DNA of 64,000 bases from Corallococcus macrosporus DSM 14697. Its GTDB lineage: Bacteria; Myxococcota; Myxococcia; Myxococcales; Myxococcaceae. The DNA lies in the NCBI RefSeq assembly GCF_002305895.1, contig NZ_CP022203.1:6234001-6298000 (forward strand), given 5' to 3'. Position numbers and translations under genes: made by a program. Numbering within the stretch: position 1 is the stretch's first letter; each line of letters begins with the position of its first letter. Below are positions 54,682-63,752 of this stretch, piece by piece. The notes beneath the pieces were generated by a model that was not told where the DNA came from, did no database searches, and was given only the letters and a program-made list of their open reading frames with translations.

Positions 54682-55104
54682 TCAGCCGCCCAGTGACAGC
54701 AGCCGCTCCACCGCCGCGCGCACGTCGCGCAGCAGCGCCGGGTCCGTCACGGCGACGAAGATGGTGTCATCCCCCGCCACTGTCCCCGCGAGCCCTGGCA
54801 GGTCCCGCTCCTTGTCCAGCGCCAGCGCGAGCACCGGCGCGAAGCCCGGCGCCGTCCGAATCACCAGCAGGTTGGGCGGCGCCTCCAGGATGGTGACGCG
54901 CGGCCGCTCCGGGACCACCGAGGGCGGCGCGGGCGCGCGCTGATAGCGCCCCCCCACCTTCAGGATGCCCAGCTTCTTCAGCCGCCGCGACAACGTCGAC
55001 TGGCTCGGCGCCTGACCCTCCGCCTCCAGGAGCTGCTGCAACACGGCCTGATCGCCGATCTCCCGCTCGCCGATGAGCCGGAGGATGGCCTCGTCCAGAT
55101 TCAT
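54682..55104 (-). CDS. argR: Arginine repressor
   Basis: A 140-residue protein from the ATG at 55104. N-terminal winged helix (EAILRLIGEREIGDQAVLQQLLEAEGQAPSQSTLSRRLKKLG) binds ARG boxes; C-terminal domain (GTVAGDDTIFVAV...RDVRAAVERLL) forms the hexamer and binds arginine. Divergent from the arginine operon with the operators in between, so it probably controls both directions. Confidence 0.92.
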   Translation of the reverse strand: MNLDEAILRLIGEREIGDQAVLQQLLEAEGQAPSQSTLSRRLKKLGILKVGGRYQRAPAPPSVVPERPRVTILEAPPNLLVIRTAPGFAPVLALALDKERDLPGLAGTVAGDDTIFVAVTDPALLRDVRAAVERLLSLGG

Positions 55105-55114
55105 TCCCACCAAC

Positions 55115-55258
55115 ATGCATGCTCGTGAATATTCATGCAAGCGCATGCATGCGCCTGTTGCGAATAATCCGCTTGCGCGGCGCGTCTTTCTGCATAATAT
55201 CCGCCGCCTTTTCGCGGCGATGCACGCATTTTCACGCATATTCATCACGAATATGCAG
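55115..55258. promoter_or_regulatory. ArgR operator region (ARG boxes) between argR and the arginine operon
   Basis: An AT-rich stretch in otherwise GC-rich DNA. Best box: TCGTGAATATTCATGCAA (55123-55140), matching the known TGAATxxxxATTCA-type ARG-box half-sites. Another palindrome is GCATATTC-atcac-GAATATGC (55236-55256), and there are partial copies near 55160 (TTGCGAATAATCC) and 55191 (TGCATAATATCC). Arginine-dependent repression is expected. Confidence 0.75.
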
Positions 55259-55285: not shown

Positions 55286-56293
55286 ATGAAGCACGTCACG
55301 CACATCAAGGATCTGGGGCCGGAGGGCGTGGAGGCGGTGCTCGCGCAGGCGGCCGCGTGGAAGCAGAAGGGTCCGGAGGGCGCGCTCTTCGCCAACACGC
55401 TGCTGGGCATGGTGTTCTTCAACCCGTCGCTGCGCACCCGCACCTCGTTCGAGGCCGTCATGCTGCGCGGGGGTGGCAACGCCATCATCCTGGACGTGGG
55501 CGCGGGCGTCTGGAAGCTGGAGCACCGCGAGGGCGCGGTGATGAACGCGGACCGGGCCGAGCACCTCAAGGAGGCCGCGCCCGTGCTGTCCCGCTTCGTG
55601 GACCTGCTGGGCGTGCGCACCTTCTCGCAGGGCGGCGGTGACGAGGAGGACGAGCTGGATCCTGTCATCAACGCGTTCCGCAAGTGGTCCACCGTGCCGG
55701 TGGTGAGCATGGAGTCCGCGCGCGAGCACCCCTGCCAGGGCCTGGCGGACGTGCTGACGCTGCGCGAGACGTTCGGCGGCACGAAGAAGCTGCCGGTGAC
55801 GCTGACGTGGGCGCCGCACATCAAGCCGCTGCCCAAGGCCGTGCCCAACTCCTTCCTGCTGAGCGCGGCGGCGGCGGGCTGCGAGGTCCGCGTGGCCCAT
55901 CCTCCCGGGTTCGACCTGCACCCGGCCGTGCGCGCCGAGGCGGAGGCGTACGCCCGGGCCACGGGCGGCAGCATCACGTATACGCACGACCAGGACGAGG
56001 CCCTGGCCGGCAGCCGCGCCGTCTACGCCAAGTCGTGGGGTCCCACGGCCGCGGCGGCCTTCTCCCCCAACGACGTCACCGCGCTGCTCGCGTCCTACTC
56101 CGGCTGGATGCCCACGCGCCTGACGATGTCGCGCGCGGCGAAGGACGCGGCCTTCCTCCACTGCCTGCCCGTGCGCCGGAACGTGGAGGTGGCCGATGAG
56201 GTCCTGGACCACCCGAGCAGCCGCGTCGTAGACGAGGCCAGCAACCGCTACCACGTCCAGCGCGCGCTCCTGCACTGGATGCGCTCGCGCTGA
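55286..56293 (+). CDS. argF': N-acetylornithine carbamoyltransferase
   Basis: A 335-residue transcarbamylase from the ATG at 55286 (GGGGAGGACA upstream). The carbamoyl-phosphate loop reads VFFNPSLRTRTSFE, the form seen in Xanthomonas acetylornithine transcarbamylase, with ESAREHPCQGLAD, YAKSWG and HCLPVRRNVEVADEVLD following the same enzyme. So it should use N-acetylornithine and make N-acetylcitrulline, not ornithine to citrulline. An N-succinylornithine preference cannot be excluded. First gene of the arginine operon. Confidence 0.88.
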   Translation: MKHVTHIKDLGPEGVEAVLAQAAAWKQKGPEGALFANTLLGMVFFNPSLRTRTSFEAVMLRGGGNAIILDVGAGVWKLEHREGAVMNADRAEHLKEAAPVLSRFVDLLGVRTFSQGGGDEEDELDPVINAFRKWSTVPVVSMESAREHPCQGLADVLTLRETFGGTKKLPVTLTWAPHIKPLPKAVPNSFLLSAAAAGCEVRVAHPPGFDLHPAVRAEAEAYARATGGSITYTHDQDEALAGSRAVYAKSWGPTAAAAFSPNDVTALLASYSGWMPTRLTMSRAAKDAAFLHCLPVRRNVEVADEVLDHPSSRVVDEASNRYHVQRALLHWMRSR

Positions 56294-56337: not shown

Positions 56338-57264
56338 GTGCCCCTTTCGCCCGACCCCTACTCCGCGCTTCGCAACGCGGCGAAGTACGTGCAGCAGTTC
56401 CGCCGCAAGACGTTCGTGGTGAAGCTCGGCGGCGCCATGCTGAGCGACCCGCGCCTGCGCCGCGCCGCCTGCGAGCAGATCGCCCTGCTGTGGACCTTCT
56501 CCATCCGCCCCGTCGTGGTGCACGGCGGCGGCCCGGAGCTGGACACGCTGTGTGACGCCCTCCACCTGCCGGTGGAGAAGGTGGCGGGCCGCCGCGTCAC
56601 CTCCGCGCCCGTGCTGGACGCGGCGAAGATGGTGCTCGCGGGCAAGCTGCACACGGACCTGCTGGCGGACCTCCAGGCGGCGGGCGTGCCCGCGGTGGGC
56701 CTGAGCGGCGTGGACGCCGGCCTCATCAAGGCGCGCAAGCGCCCGCCCGTGATGGTGACGGAGGCAGGCGCCACCGAGGGCAGGCTGGTGGACTACGGCC
56801 TGGTGGGCGACATCGAGCAGGTGGACACCCGCGTGGTGGAGCACCTGCGCTCGGCGGACTACGTGCCCGTCATCGCCCCGCTGTCGGGCGGCGCGGACGG
56901 CGCCGTGTACAACACCAACGCGGACACCGTGGCCGCGGCGCTCGCGGTGGCGCTGTCCGCCGAGAAGCTCTTCTTCCTGGTCCAGGTCCCGGGCCTGCTG
57001 AAGAACGTGAGCGACCCGTCGTCGCTCGTCACGCTGGCCAACCTCACGGACCTGGCCACCATGGAGAGCACCGGCGCCATCTCCGGCGGCATGAAGCCCA
57101 AGGCGCACGCCATCCGGCACGCGCTGGTGGGCGGCGTGGGCAGCGTGCACCTCGTCAGCGGCGTGCAGCCCAACGCGCTCCTGGAGGAGGTCTTCACCAA
57201 CGAGGGCAGCGGCACCATGGTCGTGCGGGAGAACGCCAACAAGCCCGCCGGGGCGGTGGGATGA
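56338..57264 (+). CDS. argB: Acetylglutamate kinase
   Basis: A 308-residue kinase from a GTG start. Family motifs: FVVKLGGAML, RPVVVHGGGPELDTL, GLSGVDAGLIKA, VYNTNADTVAAALAVAL and GAISGGMKPK. There is no fused GNAT (acetyltransferase) domain, unlike the bifunctional synthase-kinase of Xanthomonas. It overlaps the next start by 4 bases. Confidence 0.94.
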   Translation: MPLSPDPYSALRNAAKYVQQFRRKTFVVKLGGAMLSDPRLRRAACEQIALLWTFSIRPVVVHGGGPELDTLCDALHLPVEKVAGRRVTSAPVLDAAKMVLAGKLHTDLLADLQAAGVPAVGLSGVDAGLIKARKRPPVMVTEAGATEGRLVDYGLVGDIEQVDTRVVEHLRSADYVPVIAPLSGGADGAVYNTNADTVAAALAVALSAEKLFFLVQVPGLLKNVSDPSSLVTLANLTDLATMESTGAISGGMKPKAHAIRHALVGGVGSVHLVSGVQPNALLEEVFTNEGSGTMVVRENANKPAGAVG

Positions 57265-58322
57265 AGGCGGCGGAGCTGCTCCAGGCGCTGGTGGCCATCC
57301 CCAGCGTGTCGGGTGACGAGGGCCGCATCGCGGACACCGTGTCCGGGTGGGCGGAGGGCTGGGGCGCGCGCGTCCAGCGGCAGGGCCACAACGTGTGGTT
57401 CTCCGTGGGGAGCGGGCCGCGCCGGCTGCTCGTCAACTCGCACCTGGACACGGTGAAGCCGTGCGCCGGGTGGACGTACGAGCCCCACGCGCCCGTGTGG
57501 CGCGAGGACCGCCTGTACGGCCTGGGCAGCAACGACGCCAAGGGCTGCGTGACGGGCATGCTGCTCGCCGCCAAGGCCCTGCTCACCGAAGGTCCGCCCG
57601 CGGACGCCGAGGTGGTGTTCGCCTTCACCGCGGAGGAGGAGACGGGAGGTCAGGGCCTGGGCACCCTGCTGCCGGCGCTGGGGCCGCTGGACGCCGCCAT
57701 CGTCGGCGAGCCCACCAGCCTCAAGCCCTGCACCGCCCAGCGCGGCATGCTGCTGCTGCGCTGCACCGCGCACGGCAAGAGCGCGCACGTGGCGCACGCG
57801 CACACGACGGAGGCCGTCAACGCCATCCACCTTGCGGCGGCGGACATCGCGGTGCTGGCCGGGCTGCGCTTCGCGCCCCACCCGCTCCTGGGCGAGGCCC
57901 GGGCGCAGGTGACGCAGGTGTCGGGGGGCCTTGCGCGCAACCAGGTGCCGGACCGGTGCGAGTTCTTCGTGGACCTGCGCACCACGCCGGGCATGGAGCA
58001 CGCGCTGGTGGCGCGGCAGGTGGCCGCCGCGCTGAAGAGCGAGGTGAAGGTCCACTCGGAGCGCTACCTGCCGAAGGCGACGCCTTCGGAGCAGCCCATC
58101 GTCCGCGCGGCGGTGGCCGCCTCCGGCGCGCAGCCGGTGGGCTCCAGCACGGCGTCGGACTGGGCCTTCCTGGGGGACCTCCCCGCGGTGAAGGTGGGCC
58201 CGGGCGACACGCTGCGCAGCCACCTGGCGGACGAGTTCATCACCCGCGCGGAGCTGGAAGCCGGCGCCGCCTTCTACACGCAGCTCGTTCGGGGTTACTT
58301 CGAGGAGGTGGCGCGTGGCTGA
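57261..58322 (+). CDS. argE: M20-family N-acetylcitrulline/N-acetylornithine deacetylase
   Basis: A 353-residue zinc hydrolase. Metal-site motifs: LLVNSHLDTVKP (His, Asp), GLGSNDAKG, and AFTAEEETGGQGLG (catalytic Glu); dimer domain GKSAHVAHAHTTEAVNA. In an operon with an acetylornithine carbamoyltransferase it most likely removes the acetyl group from N-acetylcitrulline. It overlaps argB by 4 and argH by 8 bases. Confidence 0.88.
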   Translation: MKAAELLQALVAIPSVSGDEGRIADTVSGWAEGWGARVQRQGHNVWFSVGSGPRRLLVNSHLDTVKPCAGWTYEPHAPVWREDRLYGLGSNDAKGCVTGMLLAAKALLTEGPPADAEVVFAFTAEEETGGQGLGTLLPALGPLDAAIVGEPTSLKPCTAQRGMLLLRCTAHGKSAHVAHAHTTEAVNAIHLAAADIAVLAGLRFAPHPLLGEARAQVTQVSGGLARNQVPDRCEFFVDLRTTPGMEHALVARQVAAALKSEVKVHSERYLPKATPSEQPIVRAAVAASGAQPVGSSTASDWAFLGDLPAVKVGPGDTLRSHLADEFITRAELEAGAAFYTQLVRGYFEEVARG

Positions 58323-59664
58323 GACGCTGTGGGGCAAGGGCCTTCCCCTGGACGCGGCCATCCACCGCTTCACCGTGGGCAACGACCCGGTGGTGGACCT
58401 GTCGCTGGCGCCGCATGACGCGCTCGGCTCGGCCGCGCACGCGCGGATGCTGGCGCGCGTGGGCCTGCTGAAGGACGCGGAGGCCCAGGCCCTGGTGACG
58501 GCGCTCAAGGCGCTGCACGACGAGGCCCGCGCGGGGACGTTCGTCATCCGGCCCGAGCAGGAGGACGGCCACACCGCCCTGGAGGCGGCGCTGGTGGAGC
58601 GCGTGGGCGAGCCGGGCAAGCGCATCCACCTGGGGCGCTCCCGCAACGACCAGGTGCAGCTCGCCCTGCGCCTGCTGCTGCGCGAGGAGGTGCTCACGCT
58701 GGGCGCGCGGACCGCCGAGCTAGCGGGGGCCTTCCTGGACTTCGCCCAGGCGCACGCGGACGTGGCGCTGCCGGGCTACACGCACCTGCGCCGGGCCATG
58801 CCGTCCACCTTCGGCCTGTGGGGCATGGCCTTCGCGGAGGGGCTGCTGGAGGAGCTGGAGGCGCTGCGAGGCGTGTGGGCGAGGCTGGACCGCTGCCCGC
58901 TGGGCGCGGCGGCGGGCTTCGGCGTGCCGCTGCCCATCGACCGGGAGTACGTGGCGGCGCTGCTCGGTTTCTCGCGCGTGCAGCGCAGCCCCATCGACGT
59001 GCAGAACGGACGCGGCCGTCACGAGTCCGCGGTGCTGGGCTGGGCCTGCTCGGTGGCGGGCACGCTGGAGAAGTGGCTCTGGGACGTGCAGCTCTACAGC
59101 ATGGACGAGTTCGGCTTCCTCGGGCTGCCGGACGCGTACACCACGGGCTCGTCCATCATGCCGCAGAAGAAGAACCCGGACGTGGTGGAGCTGGCGCGCG
59201 GCCGGTGCCGCGAGCTGCGCGGGCTGGCGCACCAGGTGGAGGCCATCGCCGGCGGCCTGCCCTCCAGCTACCACCGCGACTTCCAGCTCCTGAAGTCCCC
59301 CACCCTGACGGCGCTGGGCTCCACGCGCGAGCTGCTGGACGTGCTCACCCGGCTGGTGCCGGCGCTCCAGGTGAAGGCGGACGCGGCGGCGCGCGCCAGC
59401 GACGACACGCTGTACGCCGCGCACCACGCCTACGCCCTGGTGGCCCAGGGGCAGGCCTTCCGCGACGCCTACAAGCAGGTGGGCCGCGAGCTGGCGGAGG
59501 GAACGTTCCATCCAGACCGCGGCGCCCTGACGGCCACCCACCTGGGTGGCGCCGGCAACCTGGGCCTGCCCCAGGCCCGGGAGGAGCTGGCCGCCGCGCG
59601 CGCCTGGCTCGATGAGACACACCGCTCGGTGGCCGAGGCCGCCGGGCGCGTCTGGACGGTTTGA
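58315..59664 (+). CDS. argH: Argininosuccinate lyase
   Basis: A 449-residue enzyme (GTG start) splitting argininosuccinate into arginine and fumarate. Signatures: HLGRSRNDQVQLALRL and the catalytic loop TGSSIMPQKKNPDVVELARG. Length typical. Start overlaps argE. Confidence 0.95.
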   Translation: MAETLWGKGLPLDAAIHRFTVGNDPVVDLSLAPHDALGSAAHARMLARVGLLKDAEAQALVTALKALHDEARAGTFVIRPEQEDGHTALEAALVERVGEPGKRIHLGRSRNDQVQLALRLLLREEVLTLGARTAELAGAFLDFAQAHADVALPGYTHLRRAMPSTFGLWGMAFAEGLLEELEALRGVWARLDRCPLGAAAGFGVPLPIDREYVAALLGFSRVQRSPIDVQNGRGRHESAVLGWACSVAGTLEKWLWDVQLYSMDEFGFLGLPDAYTTGSSIMPQKKNPDVVELARGRCRELRGLAHQVEAIAGGLPSSYHRDFQLLKSPTLTALGSTRELLDVLTRLVPALQVKADAAARASDDTLYAAHHAYALVAQGQAFRDAYKQVGRELAEGTFHPDRGALTATHLGGAGNLGLPQAREELAAARAWLDETHRSVAEAAGRVWTV

Positions 59665-59689
59665 ACTGCTTCCCCGCGAGGAGCGAATC

Positions 59690-60880
59690 ATGAGCAACAA
59701 GAAGAACGTGGTGCTGGCCTTCTCCGGCGGACTCGACACCGCTTTCTGCACCGTCTACCTGCGCGAGCAGGGCTACGACGTCACCACCGTCACCGTGGAC
59801 ACCGGCGGCTTCCCGCCCGAGCAGTTGGAGCGCATCGCCGCGCTGGCCAGGCAGTTGGGCGCGGTGGAGCACGTGACGGTGGACGCGCGCGACACGCTCT
59901 TCCAGGGCTACCTGCGCTACCTCATCGCCGGCAACGTGCTGCGCGGCCAGGTCTACCCCCTGAGCGTGTCCGCGGAGCGGGCCTGCCAGGCGGTGGAGGT
60001 CGTCCGCGTGGCGCGCGAGAAGGGCGTCCAGGCGCTGGCGCACGGCAGCACGGGCGCGGGCAATGACCAGGTGCGCTTCGACGTGGCCTTCCGCTCGCTG
60101 GCGCCGGAGCTGGAGCTGCTCACGCCCATCCGCACGCTGTCCCTCAGCCGCCAGCAGGAGCTGTCCTACCTGGCCGAGCGCGGCGTCCACATGCCCCCGA
60201 AGCTGGGCGCCTACTCCGTCAACGAGGGCATGTGGGGCACCTCCGTGGGCGGCGCCGAGACGCTGGACTCCTGGAGGGCGCTGCCCGAGGCGGCCTTCCC
60301 CGGCGGCGAGCTGCCCGCGGACTTGAAGCCCCGCCCGCTCACCATTGGCTTCGAGAAGGGCGTCCCCGTGTCGCTGGACGGCGAGAAGCTGGGCCCCGTG
60401 AAGCTGGTGGAGGCGCTCAACGCGCTGGGGCGCACCTACGGCATCGGCCGGGGCGTGCACCTGGGGGACACGATTCTGGGCATCAAGGGCCGGGTGGGCT
60501 TCGAGGCGCCGGCGGCGCACCTGCTCGTCACGGCGCACCGCGAGCTGGAGAAGCTGGTGCTCTCCGGCAAGCAGCTCTTCTGGAAGGAGTCGATGGGCAA
60601 CCTCTACGGCTCGCTGCTGCACGAGGGCCACTTCTTCGACCCGCTGGTGAAGGACCTGGAGGCGTTCCTCACCTCGTCGCAGGAGCGCGTGACGGGTGAG
60701 GTGCGGCTGGTGCTGCACGCGCGCACCCAGGTGGTGGAGGGCGTGCGCTCGCCGCACTCGCTGATGGACGCGAAGGTGGCGACGTACGGAGAGGCCAACG
60801 TGTTGTGGAACGGCTCGGAAGCCGCGGGCTTCGCCAAGCTGTACGGCGTCGCGCAGATGCTCTCGCATCGCGCGAAGTGA
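59690..60880 (+). CDS. argG: Argininosuccinate synthase
   Basis: A 396-residue enzyme joining citrulline and aspartate with ATP. The P-loop reads VVLAFSGGLDTAFCTVYL, where most homologues have GGLDTS; HGSTGAGNDQVRFD, YSVNEGMWGTSVGG and IGFEKGVPVSL are typical. The ATG follows a GAGGAG site. Confidence 0.95.
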   Translation: MSNKKNVVLAFSGGLDTAFCTVYLREQGYDVTTVTVDTGGFPPEQLERIAALARQLGAVEHVTVDARDTLFQGYLRYLIAGNVLRGQVYPLSVSAERACQAVEVVRVAREKGVQALAHGSTGAGNDQVRFDVAFRSLAPELELLTPIRTLSLSRQQELSYLAERGVHMPPKLGAYSVNEGMWGTSVGGAETLDSWRALPEAAFPGGELPADLKPRPLTIGFEKGVPVSLDGEKLGPVKLVEALNALGRTYGIGRGVHLGDTILGIKGRVGFEAPAAHLLVTAHRELEKLVLSGKQLFWKESMGNLYGSLLHEGHFFDPLVKDLEAFLTSSQERVTGEVRLVLHARTQVVEGVRSPHSLMDAKVATYGEANVLWNGSEAAGFAKLYGVAQMLSHRAK

Positions 60881-60887
60881 GGGTGCC

Positions 60888-61949
60888 ATGAAGGTTTTCG
60901 TCGACAAGGTGGGCAGCGTCACCCGCAACCTCGGCCTGGGCCGGACGGTCCACCTCTCCTCCGAGGTGAAGGCCGAGGAAGGCGCCGTGGTGGCCGTGCG
61001 CATCCACGGAGAGAAGAGCAACTACAACCAGCTCGAGGACGTGCACGGGCGCCTGGTGACGCTGCACGCCGGTGACATCGTCGTGGGCGCGCTGGGCCAC
61101 CGCAACGCGCTGCACGGCTACGAGGGCGTGGTGCCGGCGAGCGTCACGGTGGGCGAGCGGCTGCACGTGCTCAACATGGGCGGCGTCATCGGCAAGTGCA
61201 CCTCGCACAACCACGGCGTGGGCCTGCCCTTCGAGGCGGAGGTGCTGGGCCAGGTGCTGGAGTTCCCGGAGCTGATGTCGCGCACCGGGCAGCCGGCGCA
61301 CGTGTCCTCCGGCGCGCTGAAGGGCACCGCGGCGCCGGTGAAGTGCCCCGTCGTCTACGTGGTGGGCACCTGCATGAACGCGGGCAAGACGTTCGCCGCG
61401 GCGGCCATGGTGCGCAAGCTGGCGCAGGCGGGCTTCCGCGTGGGCGGCGCCAAGCTGACGGGCGTGTCGCTGATGCGGGACACGCTGAGCATGCAGGACT
61501 CCGGCGCGGACGTGGTGATGGACTTCACGGACGCGGGCATCGTCTGCACGGGCCCCCGCACGGGCGCGCGCGTGGCGCGGGTGCTCTTCTCCGAGCTGGC
61601 GGCGGAGAACGTGGACGTCATCGTCGCGGAGACGGGCGACGGCATCATGGGCGAGTACGGCGTGCAGGGCATCCTCGCCGACCCGGAGCTCAAGAGCCTG
61701 GCGGGCGCGTGGGTGCTGTGCGCCAACGACCCGGTGGGCGCCTCCGGCGGCGTGCGCCACCTGCGCGAGGCGTACGGCATCGACGTGGACGTGGTGGCCG
61801 GCCCGGCCACGGACAACGCCGTGGGCGTGCGCTTCGTGGAGCAGGTGGTGGGCATCCCCGCCCGCAACGCCCGCGCGGACGCGGCGGCGCTGGGCGGACT
61901 CATCCTGGAAAAGCTCGCCCCCAAGCTGGGCGCGGGGAGGAAGTCATGA
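60888..61949 (+). CDS. DUF1611-family P-loop protein within the arginine operon
   Basis: A 353-residue protein. Residues 1-150 form a beta-rich domain (VAVRIHGEKSNYNQLEDVHGRLVTL, NMGGVIGKCTSHNHGVG). Residue 160 onward is a dethiobiotin-synthetase-like P-loop domain: VVGTCMNAGKTFAAAAMV, GGAKLTGVSLM, VIVAETGDGIMGEYGVQG, WVLCANDPVGASGGV. The related DgcN (DUF1611) acetylates D-glutamate from acetyl-CoA. Placed 7 bases after argG and overlapping argC by 4, it is a candidate for glutamate acetylation here; that is inference. Confidence 0.8.
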   Translation: MKVFVDKVGSVTRNLGLGRTVHLSSEVKAEEGAVVAVRIHGEKSNYNQLEDVHGRLVTLHAGDIVVGALGHRNALHGYEGVVPASVTVGERLHVLNMGGVIGKCTSHNHGVGLPFEAEVLGQVLEFPELMSRTGQPAHVSSGALKGTAAPVKCPVVYVVGTCMNAGKTFAAAAMVRKLAQAGFRVGGAKLTGVSLMRDTLSMQDSGADVVMDFTDAGIVCTGPRTGARVARVLFSELAAENVDVIVAETGDGIMGEYGVQGILADPELKSLAGAWVLCANDPVGASGGVRHLREAYGIDVDVVAGPATDNAVGVRFVEQVVGIPARNARADAAALGGLILEKLAPKLGAGRKS

Positions 61950-63013
61950 CGCAGGTCAACATCTACATCCTGGGTGCCTCCGGCTTCGGCGGCGGCGAGC
62001 TCTTGCGCATCCTCACCCACCACCCCGCGGTGGCCAGCATCCGCGCGGTGTCGCGGCACCACGCCGGCGAGCCCATCCACAAGGTGCACCCGCACCTGCG
62101 CGGCCTGGTGGAGGGCCGCTTCGAGGCGGAGCCCGACTGGAAGTGGCTGGCGGACTGCCAGCAGCCCGTCGTCTTCAGCGCGCTGGGCCACGGCGAGCTG
62201 GCCAAACAGTTCTCGGGCCTGGAGAAGCAGTGGGCGGAGGCCGGCATCGCCGAGCGCCTGCTGCTCATCGACCTGTCCTCCGACTTCCGGCTGGACCACC
62301 CGGGCCGCTACGCGGGCGCCTACGGCCGGCCCCACCCCTCCCCGGAGCTGCTGGGCACCTTCACCTACGGCCTCACCGAGTGGAAGCGTGACGCGGTGAA
62401 GACGGCGAAGCGCATCGCCAACCCGGGCTGCTTCGCCACGGCGGTGCAGCTCGCGCTGCTGCCCATCGCCTCCACGCCGGGCCTGGGGCTGCTGGCGGTG
62501 TCCGGCGTCACGGGCTCGTCCGGCTCCGGCTCGCTGCCGGGCGAGGGCACGCACCACCCGACGCGCGCGCACGACTTCCGCGCCTACAAGCCGCTGGAGC
62601 ACCAGCACGAGGCCGAGGTGGAGGTCATGCTGGTGGCCCACGGCGCGCAGCGGCACCGGCTGGCCTTCGTGCCGCACTCGGCGCCCATGGTGCGCGGCAT
62701 CTTCGCCACCGTGCAGTTCGAGTGGCCGGAGCACGGCGGCGCGGTGGTGACGGCGTCGCTGATGGAGCGCTACCGCCGCTACTACGAGGGCTCCAGGTTC
62801 GTGCGCATCGTGGAGGGCACGCCGCGCATCGCCGCGGTGGCCGGCAGCAACTTCTGCGACATCGCGGTGGCCACCAAGGGCCGCTCGGTGGCCGTCATGG
62901 CCGCGCTGGACAACCTGGTGAAGGGCATGGCCGGCCAGGCGGTGCAGAACCTCAATGTCGCCCTGGGGCTGCCGGAAGACACGGCGCTGCGCCAGGCCGC
63001 GTGCTACCCGTAG
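61946..63013 (+). CDS. argC: N-acetyl-gamma-glutamyl-phosphate reductase
   Basis: A 355-residue NADP-dependent reductase. N-terminal IYILGASGFGGGELLRIL, catalytic Cys in RIANPGCFATAVQLALLP, and SGVTGSSGSGSLPGEGTHHP. Last gene of the arginine operon; its 3' end overlaps the convergent TVP38-like gene by 62 bases. argA, argJ and argD are absent from this window. Confidence 0.93.
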   Translation: MTQVNIYILGASGFGGGELLRILTHHPAVASIRAVSRHHAGEPIHKVHPHLRGLVEGRFEAEPDWKWLADCQQPVVFSALGHGELAKQFSGLEKQWAEAGIAERLLLIDLSSDFRLDHPGRYAGAYGRPHPSPELLGTFTYGLTEWKRDAVKTAKRIANPGCFATAVQLALLPIASTPGLGLLAVSGVTGSSGSGSLPGEGTHHPTRAHDFRAYKPLEHQHEAEVEVMLVAHGAQRHRLAFVPHSAPMVRGIFATVQFEWPEHGGAVVTASLMERYRRYYEGSRFVRIVEGTPRIAAVAGSNFCDIAVATKGRSVAVMAALDNLVKGMAGQAVQNLNVALGLPEDTALRQAACYP

Positions 63014-63752
63014 GCCGCGCGCTCTCCGGGCCCGGGCGTGCGCGCCCGGGCCTGTCGCGCGAAGCGGGCGCCTCCTTCGCGAGCAGCTCCCGCATCAGCT
63101 TGCGCCCCAGCACCAGCCCGAGCAGCAGGCTCACCACCATGCCGGCGGCGGACACGGCCGTCATCCACGTCTTCCCCTGCCCCAGCGAGCTGCCGAAGAG
63201 CGCCGTCAAGAGCGTCCCGGGGAGGGTGCCCACCACGGCCCCCAGCGCCAGCGGACCATAGCGAGCGCCTGACGCGGACGCCGTCGCCAGCATCACGTCC
63301 GCGGGAATCACCGAGTTGACGCAGGCGAGGAAGCCGAGCTGGAACCCGTGCTCGCGCGCCGCGCGCTGGAACACCGGGTGCTTGTCCCCGGCCAGCCGCC
63401 GCATGGGCTTGCGGCCCAGCCTGCGCGCCAGGAAGTGGATGAGGCCGGTGGCCAGCAGCGTGCCGACGAGCGCATAGGCCGTGCCCATGGCCATGCCGAA
63501 GAGGATGCCGCCCACCGCCGTGAAGAGCTGGCCGGGCAGCAGCGTCACCGGCCGCACCGCGAGCAGCAGGATGAAGGCCACGGGCGCCAGCGCGCCCAGC
63601 GGCCGGAGCCACTCCGACAGTGTCTGTTGATCCAGGTACTGCGGCCCCAACAGGCGCAGGCCCACGAGCAGGCCCATGGAGATGCAGAGGGGCCCGATGC
63701 GCTTGAGACCCGCGCTCAGCCGTCCTCCCTTGGAGCGGGGGTGCCTGGACAT
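62952..63752 (-). CDS. TVP38/TMEM64 (VTT/DedA-like) membrane protein
   Basis: A 266-residue protein with about six membrane segments. The family signature is seen: VRPVTLLPGQLFTAVGGILFG followed by GTAYALVGTLLATGLIHFLARRLGR, and later NSVIPADVMLATASASGARYG, GAVVGTLPGTLLTALFGSSL. Probable lipid scramblase-like or envelope role. The C-terminal 40 residues are Pro/Arg-rich and overlap argC antisense. Confidence 0.88.
   Translation of the reverse strand: MSRHPRSKGGRLSAGLKRIGPLCISMGLLVGLRLLGPQYLDQQTLSEWLRPLGALAPVAFILLLAVRPVTLLPGQLFTAVGGILFGMAMGTAYALVGTLLATGLIHFLARRLGRKPMRRLAGDKHPVFQRAAREHGFQLGFLACVNSVIPADVMLATASASGARYGPLALGAVVGTLPGTLLTALFGSSLGQGKTWMTAVSAAGMVVSLLLGLVLGRKLMRELLAKEAPASRDRPGRARPGPESARPTGSTRPGAAPCLPAAPGRH

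What the first reader, a model, noticed from the sequence alone, without database searches (positions are those of the whole stretch)
60888..61949. DUF1611 protein in the arginine operon: candidate for the missing N-acetylglutamate synthase
The operon uses an N-acetylornithine carbamoyltransferase and an M20 deacetylase, so the acetyl group is lost as acetate and must be supplied afresh from acetyl-CoA. No argA, no argJ and no GNAT domain on ArgB are present in the operon, yet a DUF1611 protein sits between argG and argC with 7-base spacing and a 4-base overlap. A DUF1611 relative (DgcN) is known as a D-glutamate N-acetyltransferase.
Basis: inference. Interest (0 to 1): 0.75.

Follow-up and report, generated by a model that had tools for sequence, protein, structure and literature searches.

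The report
Candidate missing first enzyme of arginine synthesis
A protein of unrecognised family sits in the arginine-making operon of Myxococcus and of bacteria in about nine phyla that have none of the usual enzymes for the first step, so it very probably does that step, most likely by attaching a succinyl rather than an acetyl group to glutamate.

Summary
The gene at 60888-61949 is real and sits in an arg operon, 7 bases after argG and overlapping argC by 4. Calling it DUF1611 is loose: the window protein scores below Pfam's cut-off and has another N-terminal domain. It is a P-loop protein of the dethiobiotin-synthetase/CTP-synthase/DUF1611 fold. The function guess holds up well. Homologues in about nine phyla lie with argC in 78 of 80 loci. 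ArgJ is absent from all 59 Myxococcota, all 68 Acidobacteriota and all 47 cross-phylum genomes (sets overlap) that carry this family, but common in their relatives. Classical ArgA reaches its cut-off in one of about 58 carriers, short NAGS in none. In some Acidobacteriota a four-gene cluster (this gene-argC-argD-argB) is exactly the acylated half of the pathway. One correction: the 'N-acetylornithine' carbamoyltransferase has Ala where the acetyl-specific enzyme has Glu92. Across the family this residue is mostly A/V/P/S, reported to make the enzyme prefer N-succinylornithine; three related operons with an ArgB-fused synthase-kinase keep Glu. The likeliest reading is a new, non-GNAT N-succinyl-L-glutamate synthase (N-acetyl is the rival). 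No activity was measured; whether acyl-CoA or ATP plus free acid is the donor is open.

The parts
60888..61949 (+). Candidate N-acyl-L-glutamate synthase (353 aa): N-terminal beta domain (about 1-140) plus P-loop domain (about 150-345; GTCMNAGKT at 160-168, K189, D198, D215, E248-x-G-D-G)
59687..60880 (+). argG, argininosuccinate synthase (start codon chosen by alignment)
   Evidence: TIGR00032 over cut-off
61946..63013 (+). argC, N-acyl-gamma-glutamyl-phosphate reductase; overlaps the candidate by 4 bases
   Evidence: TIGR01850 over cut-off
55286..56293 (+). argF' carbamoyltransferase, named N-acetylornithine type by NF003384; Ala at the position of Glu92 (codon 55556-55558) predicts N-succinylornithine
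56338..57264 (+). argB, N-acylglutamate kinase without GNAT domain
   Evidence: TIGR00761 over cut-off
57261..58322 (+). argE-like M20 deacylase; best NCBIfam score is a DapE (succinyl-diaminopimelate desuccinylase) model, nearly tied with acetylornithine deacetylase, none over cut-off
58315..59664 (+). argH, argininosuccinate lyase, no GNAT fusion
   Evidence: TIGR00838 over cut-off
54682..55122 (-). ArgR-type arginine repressor, divergent

Best explanation
The 353-aa protein is the first enzyme of arginine biosynthesis in these bacteria: it puts an acyl group on the amino nitrogen of L-glutamate, and the product goes to ArgB, ArgC, ArgD, the argF'-type carbamoyltransferase and the M20 deacylase. 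Most likely the acyl group is succinyl (N-succinyl-L-glutamate synthase), as in Bacteroides, but made by a P-loop protein instead of a GNAT. Inferred mechanism: the P-loop (GTCMNAGKT), K189 and E248/D251 hold the phosphates of the donor, most simply the 3'-phospho-ADP part of acyl-CoA, while arg-type-specific residues (such as Y46, L75, N96, Y257) bind glutamate and the acyl group. Shown here: gene, operon, conservation, mutual exclusion with known first-step enzymes, fold, specificity residue of the partner enzyme. Inferred: the reaction, the donor, the residue roles. My probability for 'first-step N-acylglutamate synthase of either kind' is about 0.8; the confidence given is for the succinyl version.
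For: Operon conservation: 80 loci, about nine bacterial phyla by record title plus one archaeal MAG, argC present in 78 and argG in 77; Myxococcota homologues at 46-60% identity also lie in arg operons. Exclusion with ArgJ: 0 of 59 carriers against 90 of 136 other Myxococcota, 0 of 68 against 111 of 229 Acidobacteriota, 0 of 47 genomes behind the cross-phylum loci. Full-length ArgA over cut-off in 1 of 62 genomes searched (about 58 distinct carriers, three NAGS-K controls and one duplicate), short NAGS in 0 of 62. Other operon genes cover the remaining steps, argD included where sampled. Minimal cluster candidate-argC-argD-argB in L228-L232. Of 72 carbamoyltransferases in candidate-bearing loci, position 92 is A 45, V 11, P 7, S 1, T 4, Q 3 and one unreliable alignment, never E; E in all three loci with an ArgB-fused synthase-kinase; rule S/P/A/V = succinyl from PMC7311316. 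An independent paper reports that other Holophagaceae lack N-acetylglutamate synthase (PMC11561045); Geothrix and other Holophagaceae carry this gene.
Against: No activity data. No sequence-level homology to any known acyltransferase. A genuine unknown GNAT elsewhere in each genome cannot be excluded: the own-genome scan used PF00583 only, and the Bacteroides-type enzyme (BT3761) was not searched for. One carrier MAG (G215) also has a full ArgA on another contig. T and Q at position 92 in seven loci are not covered by the published rule. L228-L232 have no carbamoyltransferase in the cluster. Fisher p-values ignore shared ancestry; at genus level in Myxococcota it is 0 of 10 against 43 of 80 (p about 0.001).
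Confidence: 0.58

Rival explanations
1. Same first step, but the product is N-acetyl-L-glutamate from acetyl-CoA; the carbamoyltransferase then uses N-acetylornithine despite Ala at position 92.
For: NCBIfam names the carbamoyltransferase N-acetylornithine type well over cut-off (446 bits, cut-off 288). Older papers list M. xanthus among organisms of the linear, acetylated pathway (PMC1865377, PMC1382215).
Against: Position 92 is A/V/P/S in 64 of 72 candidate-bearing loci and E in none, while the three synthase-kinase operons keep E. Database names of this enzyme are known to be wrong for Bacteroides (PMC7311316).
Confidence: 0.22
2. It is a helper or regulatory P-loop ATPase of arginine synthesis (complex assembly, channelling or arginine sensing), and a still unknown GNAT elsewhere makes the N-acylglutamate.
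For: MobB, CbiA and BioD-like P-loop proteins include adaptors and ATPases; there are 37 GNATs in the genome.
Against: Does not explain exclusion with ArgJ in two phyla. Where full-length genes filling operon gaps were identified they were argD. No own GNAT examined reaches a NAGS cut-off.
Confidence: 0.13
3. It is an ATP-dependent ligase: ATP phosphorylates succinate (or acetate) and glutamate's amine attacks the acyl phosphate, much as dethiobiotin synthetase and CTP synthase activate their substrates. A mechanistic variant of the best explanation, counted within it.
For: Fold matches to CTP synthase and dethiobiotin synthetase at Z 15-17; the P-loop, a second Lys (K189, aligned with the Lys of BioD's GYKP) and E248 are invariant in 47 of 47 arg-type members and kept in paralogues.
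Against: All characterised first-step enzymes use acyl-CoA or acylornithine (own knowledge); fold similarity does not show chemistry.
Confidence: 0.2
4. It acts at another step of the pathway (deacylation, transamination) or outside it.
For: An M20 deacylase was not detected in some gammaproteobacterial operons (L080, L090, L092, L098, L109, L115).
Against: argE and argD are present beside it in many loci, and the minimal cluster contains only the acylated steps.
Confidence: 0.05

Closest known systems
BT3761 / Cabys_1732-type enzymes, probable N-succinylglutamate synthase of Bacteroides and N-acetylglutamate synthase of Caldithrix (PMC7311316)
   Same: Proposed reaction and pathway: a linear route with carbamoyl transfer on the acylated ornithine and late deacylation
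   Different: BT3761 is a GNAT (own knowledge); this is a P-loop protein with a different N-terminal domain
DgcN (DUF1611), D-glutamate N-acetyltransferase
   Same: Protein of about 350 aa with a C-terminal P-loop domain of the same fold (2g0t, 2obn); reported to N-acylate glutamate (own knowledge of Yu et al. 2023, not held; pathway role in PMC12363236)
   Different: Sequence comparison insignificant, Pfam below cut-off, other N-terminal domain, arg-operon context. Genuine DUF1611 proteins occur separately in sister Myxococcus and Corallococcus genomes, one shown beside an enolase-superfamily gene
Xanthomonas-type bifunctional NAGS-K (PMC1865377)
   Same: Serves operons with the same argF'-argE organisation; found in other Myxococcota (L146-L148)
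   Different: Acyltransferase domain fused to ArgB; partner carbamoyltransferase has Glu92
Dethiobiotin synthetase, CTP synthase, MobB, CbiA/CobQ P-loop proteins
   Same: P-loop fold, Walker A, second lysine, acidic motif
   Different: Different substrates and N-terminal domain; under 20% identity

Membership tests
DUF1611 (Pfam PF07755) | Score over Pfam gathering cut-off (25 bits) | tested here: not met
   22.4 bits over 43 of 201 positions; 5 of 35 relatives match at E<=0.001
DUF1611 (Pfam PF07755) | Profile similarity to genuine DUF1611/DgcN-like proteins along the chain | tested here: not met
   hhalign probability 1.2%, 30 columns at the P-loop only
DUF1611 (Pfam PF07755) | Same fold of the C-terminal P-loop domain | tested here: inconclusive
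   2g0t Z 16.6 (rmsd 3.3, 179 aligned), 2obn Z 15.7 (rmsd 2.7, 177 aligned), tied with CTP synthase and dethiobiotin synthetase
GNAT N-acetylglutamate synthases (ArgA, S-NAGS) | GNAT (Acetyltransf_1) domain | tested here: not met
   No GNAT match in the window protein or its relatives
ArgJ ornithine acetyltransferase | PF01960 domain | tested here: not met
   No match in the protein or the genome
First-step N-acylglutamate synthase (functional class) | Genomic role: in arg operons, fills the uncovered step, exclusive with other first-step enzymes | tested here: met
First-step N-acylglutamate synthase (functional class) | Catalyses N-acylation of L-glutamate | not testable with these tools
   needs an enzyme assay
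N-succinyl (not N-acetyl) arginine pathway | Carbamoyltransferase residue 90/92 is S, P, A or V rather than E | tested here: met
   Ala in the window; 64 of 72 loci A/V/P/S, 7 T/Q, 1 unreliable, none E; position checked against PDB variants of residue 92
N-succinyl (not N-acetyl) arginine pathway | ArgB, ArgC and the deacylase prefer succinylated substrates | not testable with these tools
   needs assays; the M20 enzyme's best score is a DapE desuccinylase model, nearly tied with acetylornithine deacetylase
P-loop NTPase fold of the BioD/CTPS kind | Walker A plus conserved second Lys and acidic motif on that fold | tested here: met

The most novel reading that the evidence does not exclude
A widespread, unrecognised family of P-loop enzymes makes N-succinyl-L-glutamate by an ATP-dependent ligase mechanism (acyl phosphate), so that the first step of arginine synthesis in many phyla uses free succinate and ATP rather than an acyl-CoA.
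Probability: 0.18. Interest if true: 0.9.

Novelty: new variant of a known kind. Interest (0 to 1): 0.76.

Why it matters
It would fill a reported gap: papers (e.g. PMC11561045 on Holophagaceae) score such bacteria as lacking the first arginine enzyme. It would add a further, non-GNAT and non-ArgJ protein fold to the known enzymes for this step, show that the succinylated pathway extends far beyond Bacteroidetes, and correct a likely misannotation of the carbamoyltransferase. A single enzyme assay would test it directly.

Tried and rejected
Sequence search of the PDB with the protein and its profile: BioD/MobB P-loop matches and insignificant others, no known glutamate acyltransferase. N-terminal domain predicted alone (pLDDT 94.5): best Z 3.4, Foldseek nothing significant, so no clear known fold was found, which does not show that the fold is new. 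Considered the own-genome GNAT at L178 (genome position 2208278) as a NAGS: rejected, it passes ArsN2 and is far below the NAGS cut-offs. Considered that argF' operons can do without this gene: in the three examined without it, ArgB is fused to an extra C-terminal domain as in NAGS-K (L146-L148). LysW route in L228-L232: no room for LysW/LysX in the tight four-gene clusters inspected, but LysW was not searched genome-wide. Papers on DgcN, SOTCase/AOTCase specificity and M. xanthus argE are not held. Literature searches found no paper naming this family.

Full report
What is there. The ORF at 60888-61949 encodes 353 aa. It lies in argF'-argB-argE-argH-argG-ORF-argC with a divergent ArgR gene. 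argG ends at 60880, the ORF starts at 60888, and argC starts at 61946 inside the ORF's last codons. So the coordinates, spacing and overlap in the finding are right. The genome is a 9-Mb chromosome in one contig, 100% complete; its neighbours by protein identity are Myxococcus, Pyxidicoccus and Corallococcus.

What it is not. The label DUF1611 is loose: the Pfam match is 22.4 bits against a cut-off of 25 and covers only 43 residues around the P-loop. Genuine DUF1611 proteins occur in sister genomes at about 240-250 bits, and a profile comparison with them is insignificant. They match 7xrj, 2obn and 2g0t strongly, whereas the window's family profile matches none of these by sequence. The AlphaFold model (pLDDT 89.9) shows a beta-rich N-terminal domain and a P-loop domain whose closest solved folds are CTP synthase, two DUF1611 structures and dethiobiotin synthetase, all about Z 15-17. 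So it shares a fold with DUF1611 but is not a member by the tests run. The N-terminal domain alone had no clear structural match.

No other first enzyme. The own genome has no ArgJ, no ArgA over cut-off and no short NAGS over cut-off. Its 37 Acetyltransf_1 proteins were scanned together and 20 of them singly; none seen reaches a NAGS cut-off, and the nearest passes as ArsN2. GNATs detectable only by other Pfam models were not examined.

Phylogenetic test in Myxococcota. Among 195 genomes, 59 carry a clear homologue (46-100% identity) and five more have weak matches. None of the 59 has ArgJ; 90 of the other 136 do. Family f1 splits by genus: g1, g5, g6, g8, g9 have the candidate and an over-threshold argF'; most other genera have ArgJ and only sub-threshold carbamoyltransferase matches. 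Homologues from other families at 46-60% identity also sit with arg genes. By genus it is 0 of 10 against 43 of 80, Fisher p about 0.001; genome-level p-values are inflated by shared ancestry.

Other phyla. A scan of 85,000 species genomes gave 567 confirmed relatives, of which the best 80 were kept. argC lies with the gene in 78, argG in 77, and ArgJ was not detected in any locus. Record titles cover Myxococcota, Acidobacteriota, Pseudomonadota, Armatimonadota, Planctomycetota, Verrucomicrobiota, Gemmatimonadota, Elusimicrobiota and Bdellovibrionota, with one archaeal MAG. In 47 genomes behind these loci ArgJ was found in none, with the control ringing in 10 of 14. In 62 genomes (about 58 distinct carriers, three NAGS-K controls, one duplicate) a full ArgA passed cut-off once, in a planctomycete MAG on a separate contig, and a short NAGS never. 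A second sampled phylum, Acidobacteriota (297 genomes), gave 68 carriers with arg-type scores and 111 with ArgJ, overlap zero. Twelve genomes had only low-scoring paralogues; five of those have ArgJ, and the six paralogue loci examined from these genomes are not in arg operons.

Operon logic. Where the operon has an extra gene of argD size it was argD in the six cases scanned. In L228-L232 the cluster shrinks to candidate-argC-argD-argB, with nothing else between the genes in the three inspected: these are steps 2-4 plus the candidate. In three Myxococcota that have argF' but not the candidate (L146-L148), ArgB carries a C-terminal extension, the arrangement of Xanthomonas NAGS-K (PMC1865377). 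The first-step solutions thus appear as alternatives to one another.

Acetyl or succinyl. PDB variants of the Xanthomonas enzyme at residue 92 locate the specificity position; the window has Ala there. GapMind's authors state that S, P, A or V at this position cause preference for the succinylated substrate and that the Bacteroides enzyme was misannotated (PMC7311316). In 72 candidate-bearing loci the residue is A 45, V 11, P 7, S 1, T 4, Q 3 and one unreliable alignment, while the three NAGS-K loci have E. The operon therefore most likely runs on N-succinyl intermediates, and the candidate would be an N-succinylglutamate synthase. The window's deacylase scores best with a DapE desuccinylase model, but only marginally above acetylornithine deacetylase.

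Mechanism (inferred). Across 47 arg-type members the Walker A motif (G160, M163, G166, K167, T168), K189, D198, E248, D251 and G252 are invariant and D215 nearly so, and they are shared with the paralogues; Y46, L75, G77, N96, G250, G255, Y257, G287 and G313 are invariant in the arg type and mostly differ in paralogues. The shared set looks like a phosphate-binding and activating site, the specific set like part of a substrate pocket. An acyl-CoA donor is the conservative choice; an ATP-dependent ligase like BioD or CTP synthase is not excluded.

Evolution. In a tree the Myxococcaceae proteins nest among Acidobacteriota and Gammaproteobacteria, consistent with horizontal transfer of the operon replacing an ArgJ-type pathway in part of the family.

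Prior knowledge. A 2024 paper reports that other Holophagaceae lack N-acetylglutamate synthase (PMC11561045); Geothrix and its relatives carry this gene. I found no paper naming this family in the library searched, which lacks most subscription journals. That DgcN uses acetyl-CoA and D-glutamate is my own knowledge of Yu et al. 2023, not held; its pathway role is summarised in PMC12363236.

Noticed in passing
L038:2868-3842, L237:7059-7922, L238:6306-7196 (also L236, L239-L241): A paralogue group (about 30-40% identity) outside arg operons; in these three loci it lies beside or near an ABC transporter, and in two of them also beside an M14/AstE-like zinc hydrolase. Function unknown.
   Followed up: partly
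L194-L223: Genuine DUF1611 (DgcN-like) genes in many sister Myxococcus and Corallococcus genomes, shown in L210 beside an enolase-superfamily gene, but absent from the window's genome.
   Followed up: partly
L228-L232: Acidobacteriota with a four-gene cluster candidate-argC-argD-argB and no argF' nearby: how they finish the pathway was not examined.
   Followed up: partly
L065 and L132: Record titles 'Comamonas sp. KCTC 72670' and 'Klebsiella pneumoniae isolate ME-21oct19-254' look misassigned: L065 is 98% identical to the Myxococcus-type protein, and L132 groups with uncultured Pseudomonadota MAGs.
   Followed up: no
window 62952-63752 (-): ORF converging on argC that looks like a membrane protein of the TVP38/DedA kind by eye; not tested.
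   Followed up: no
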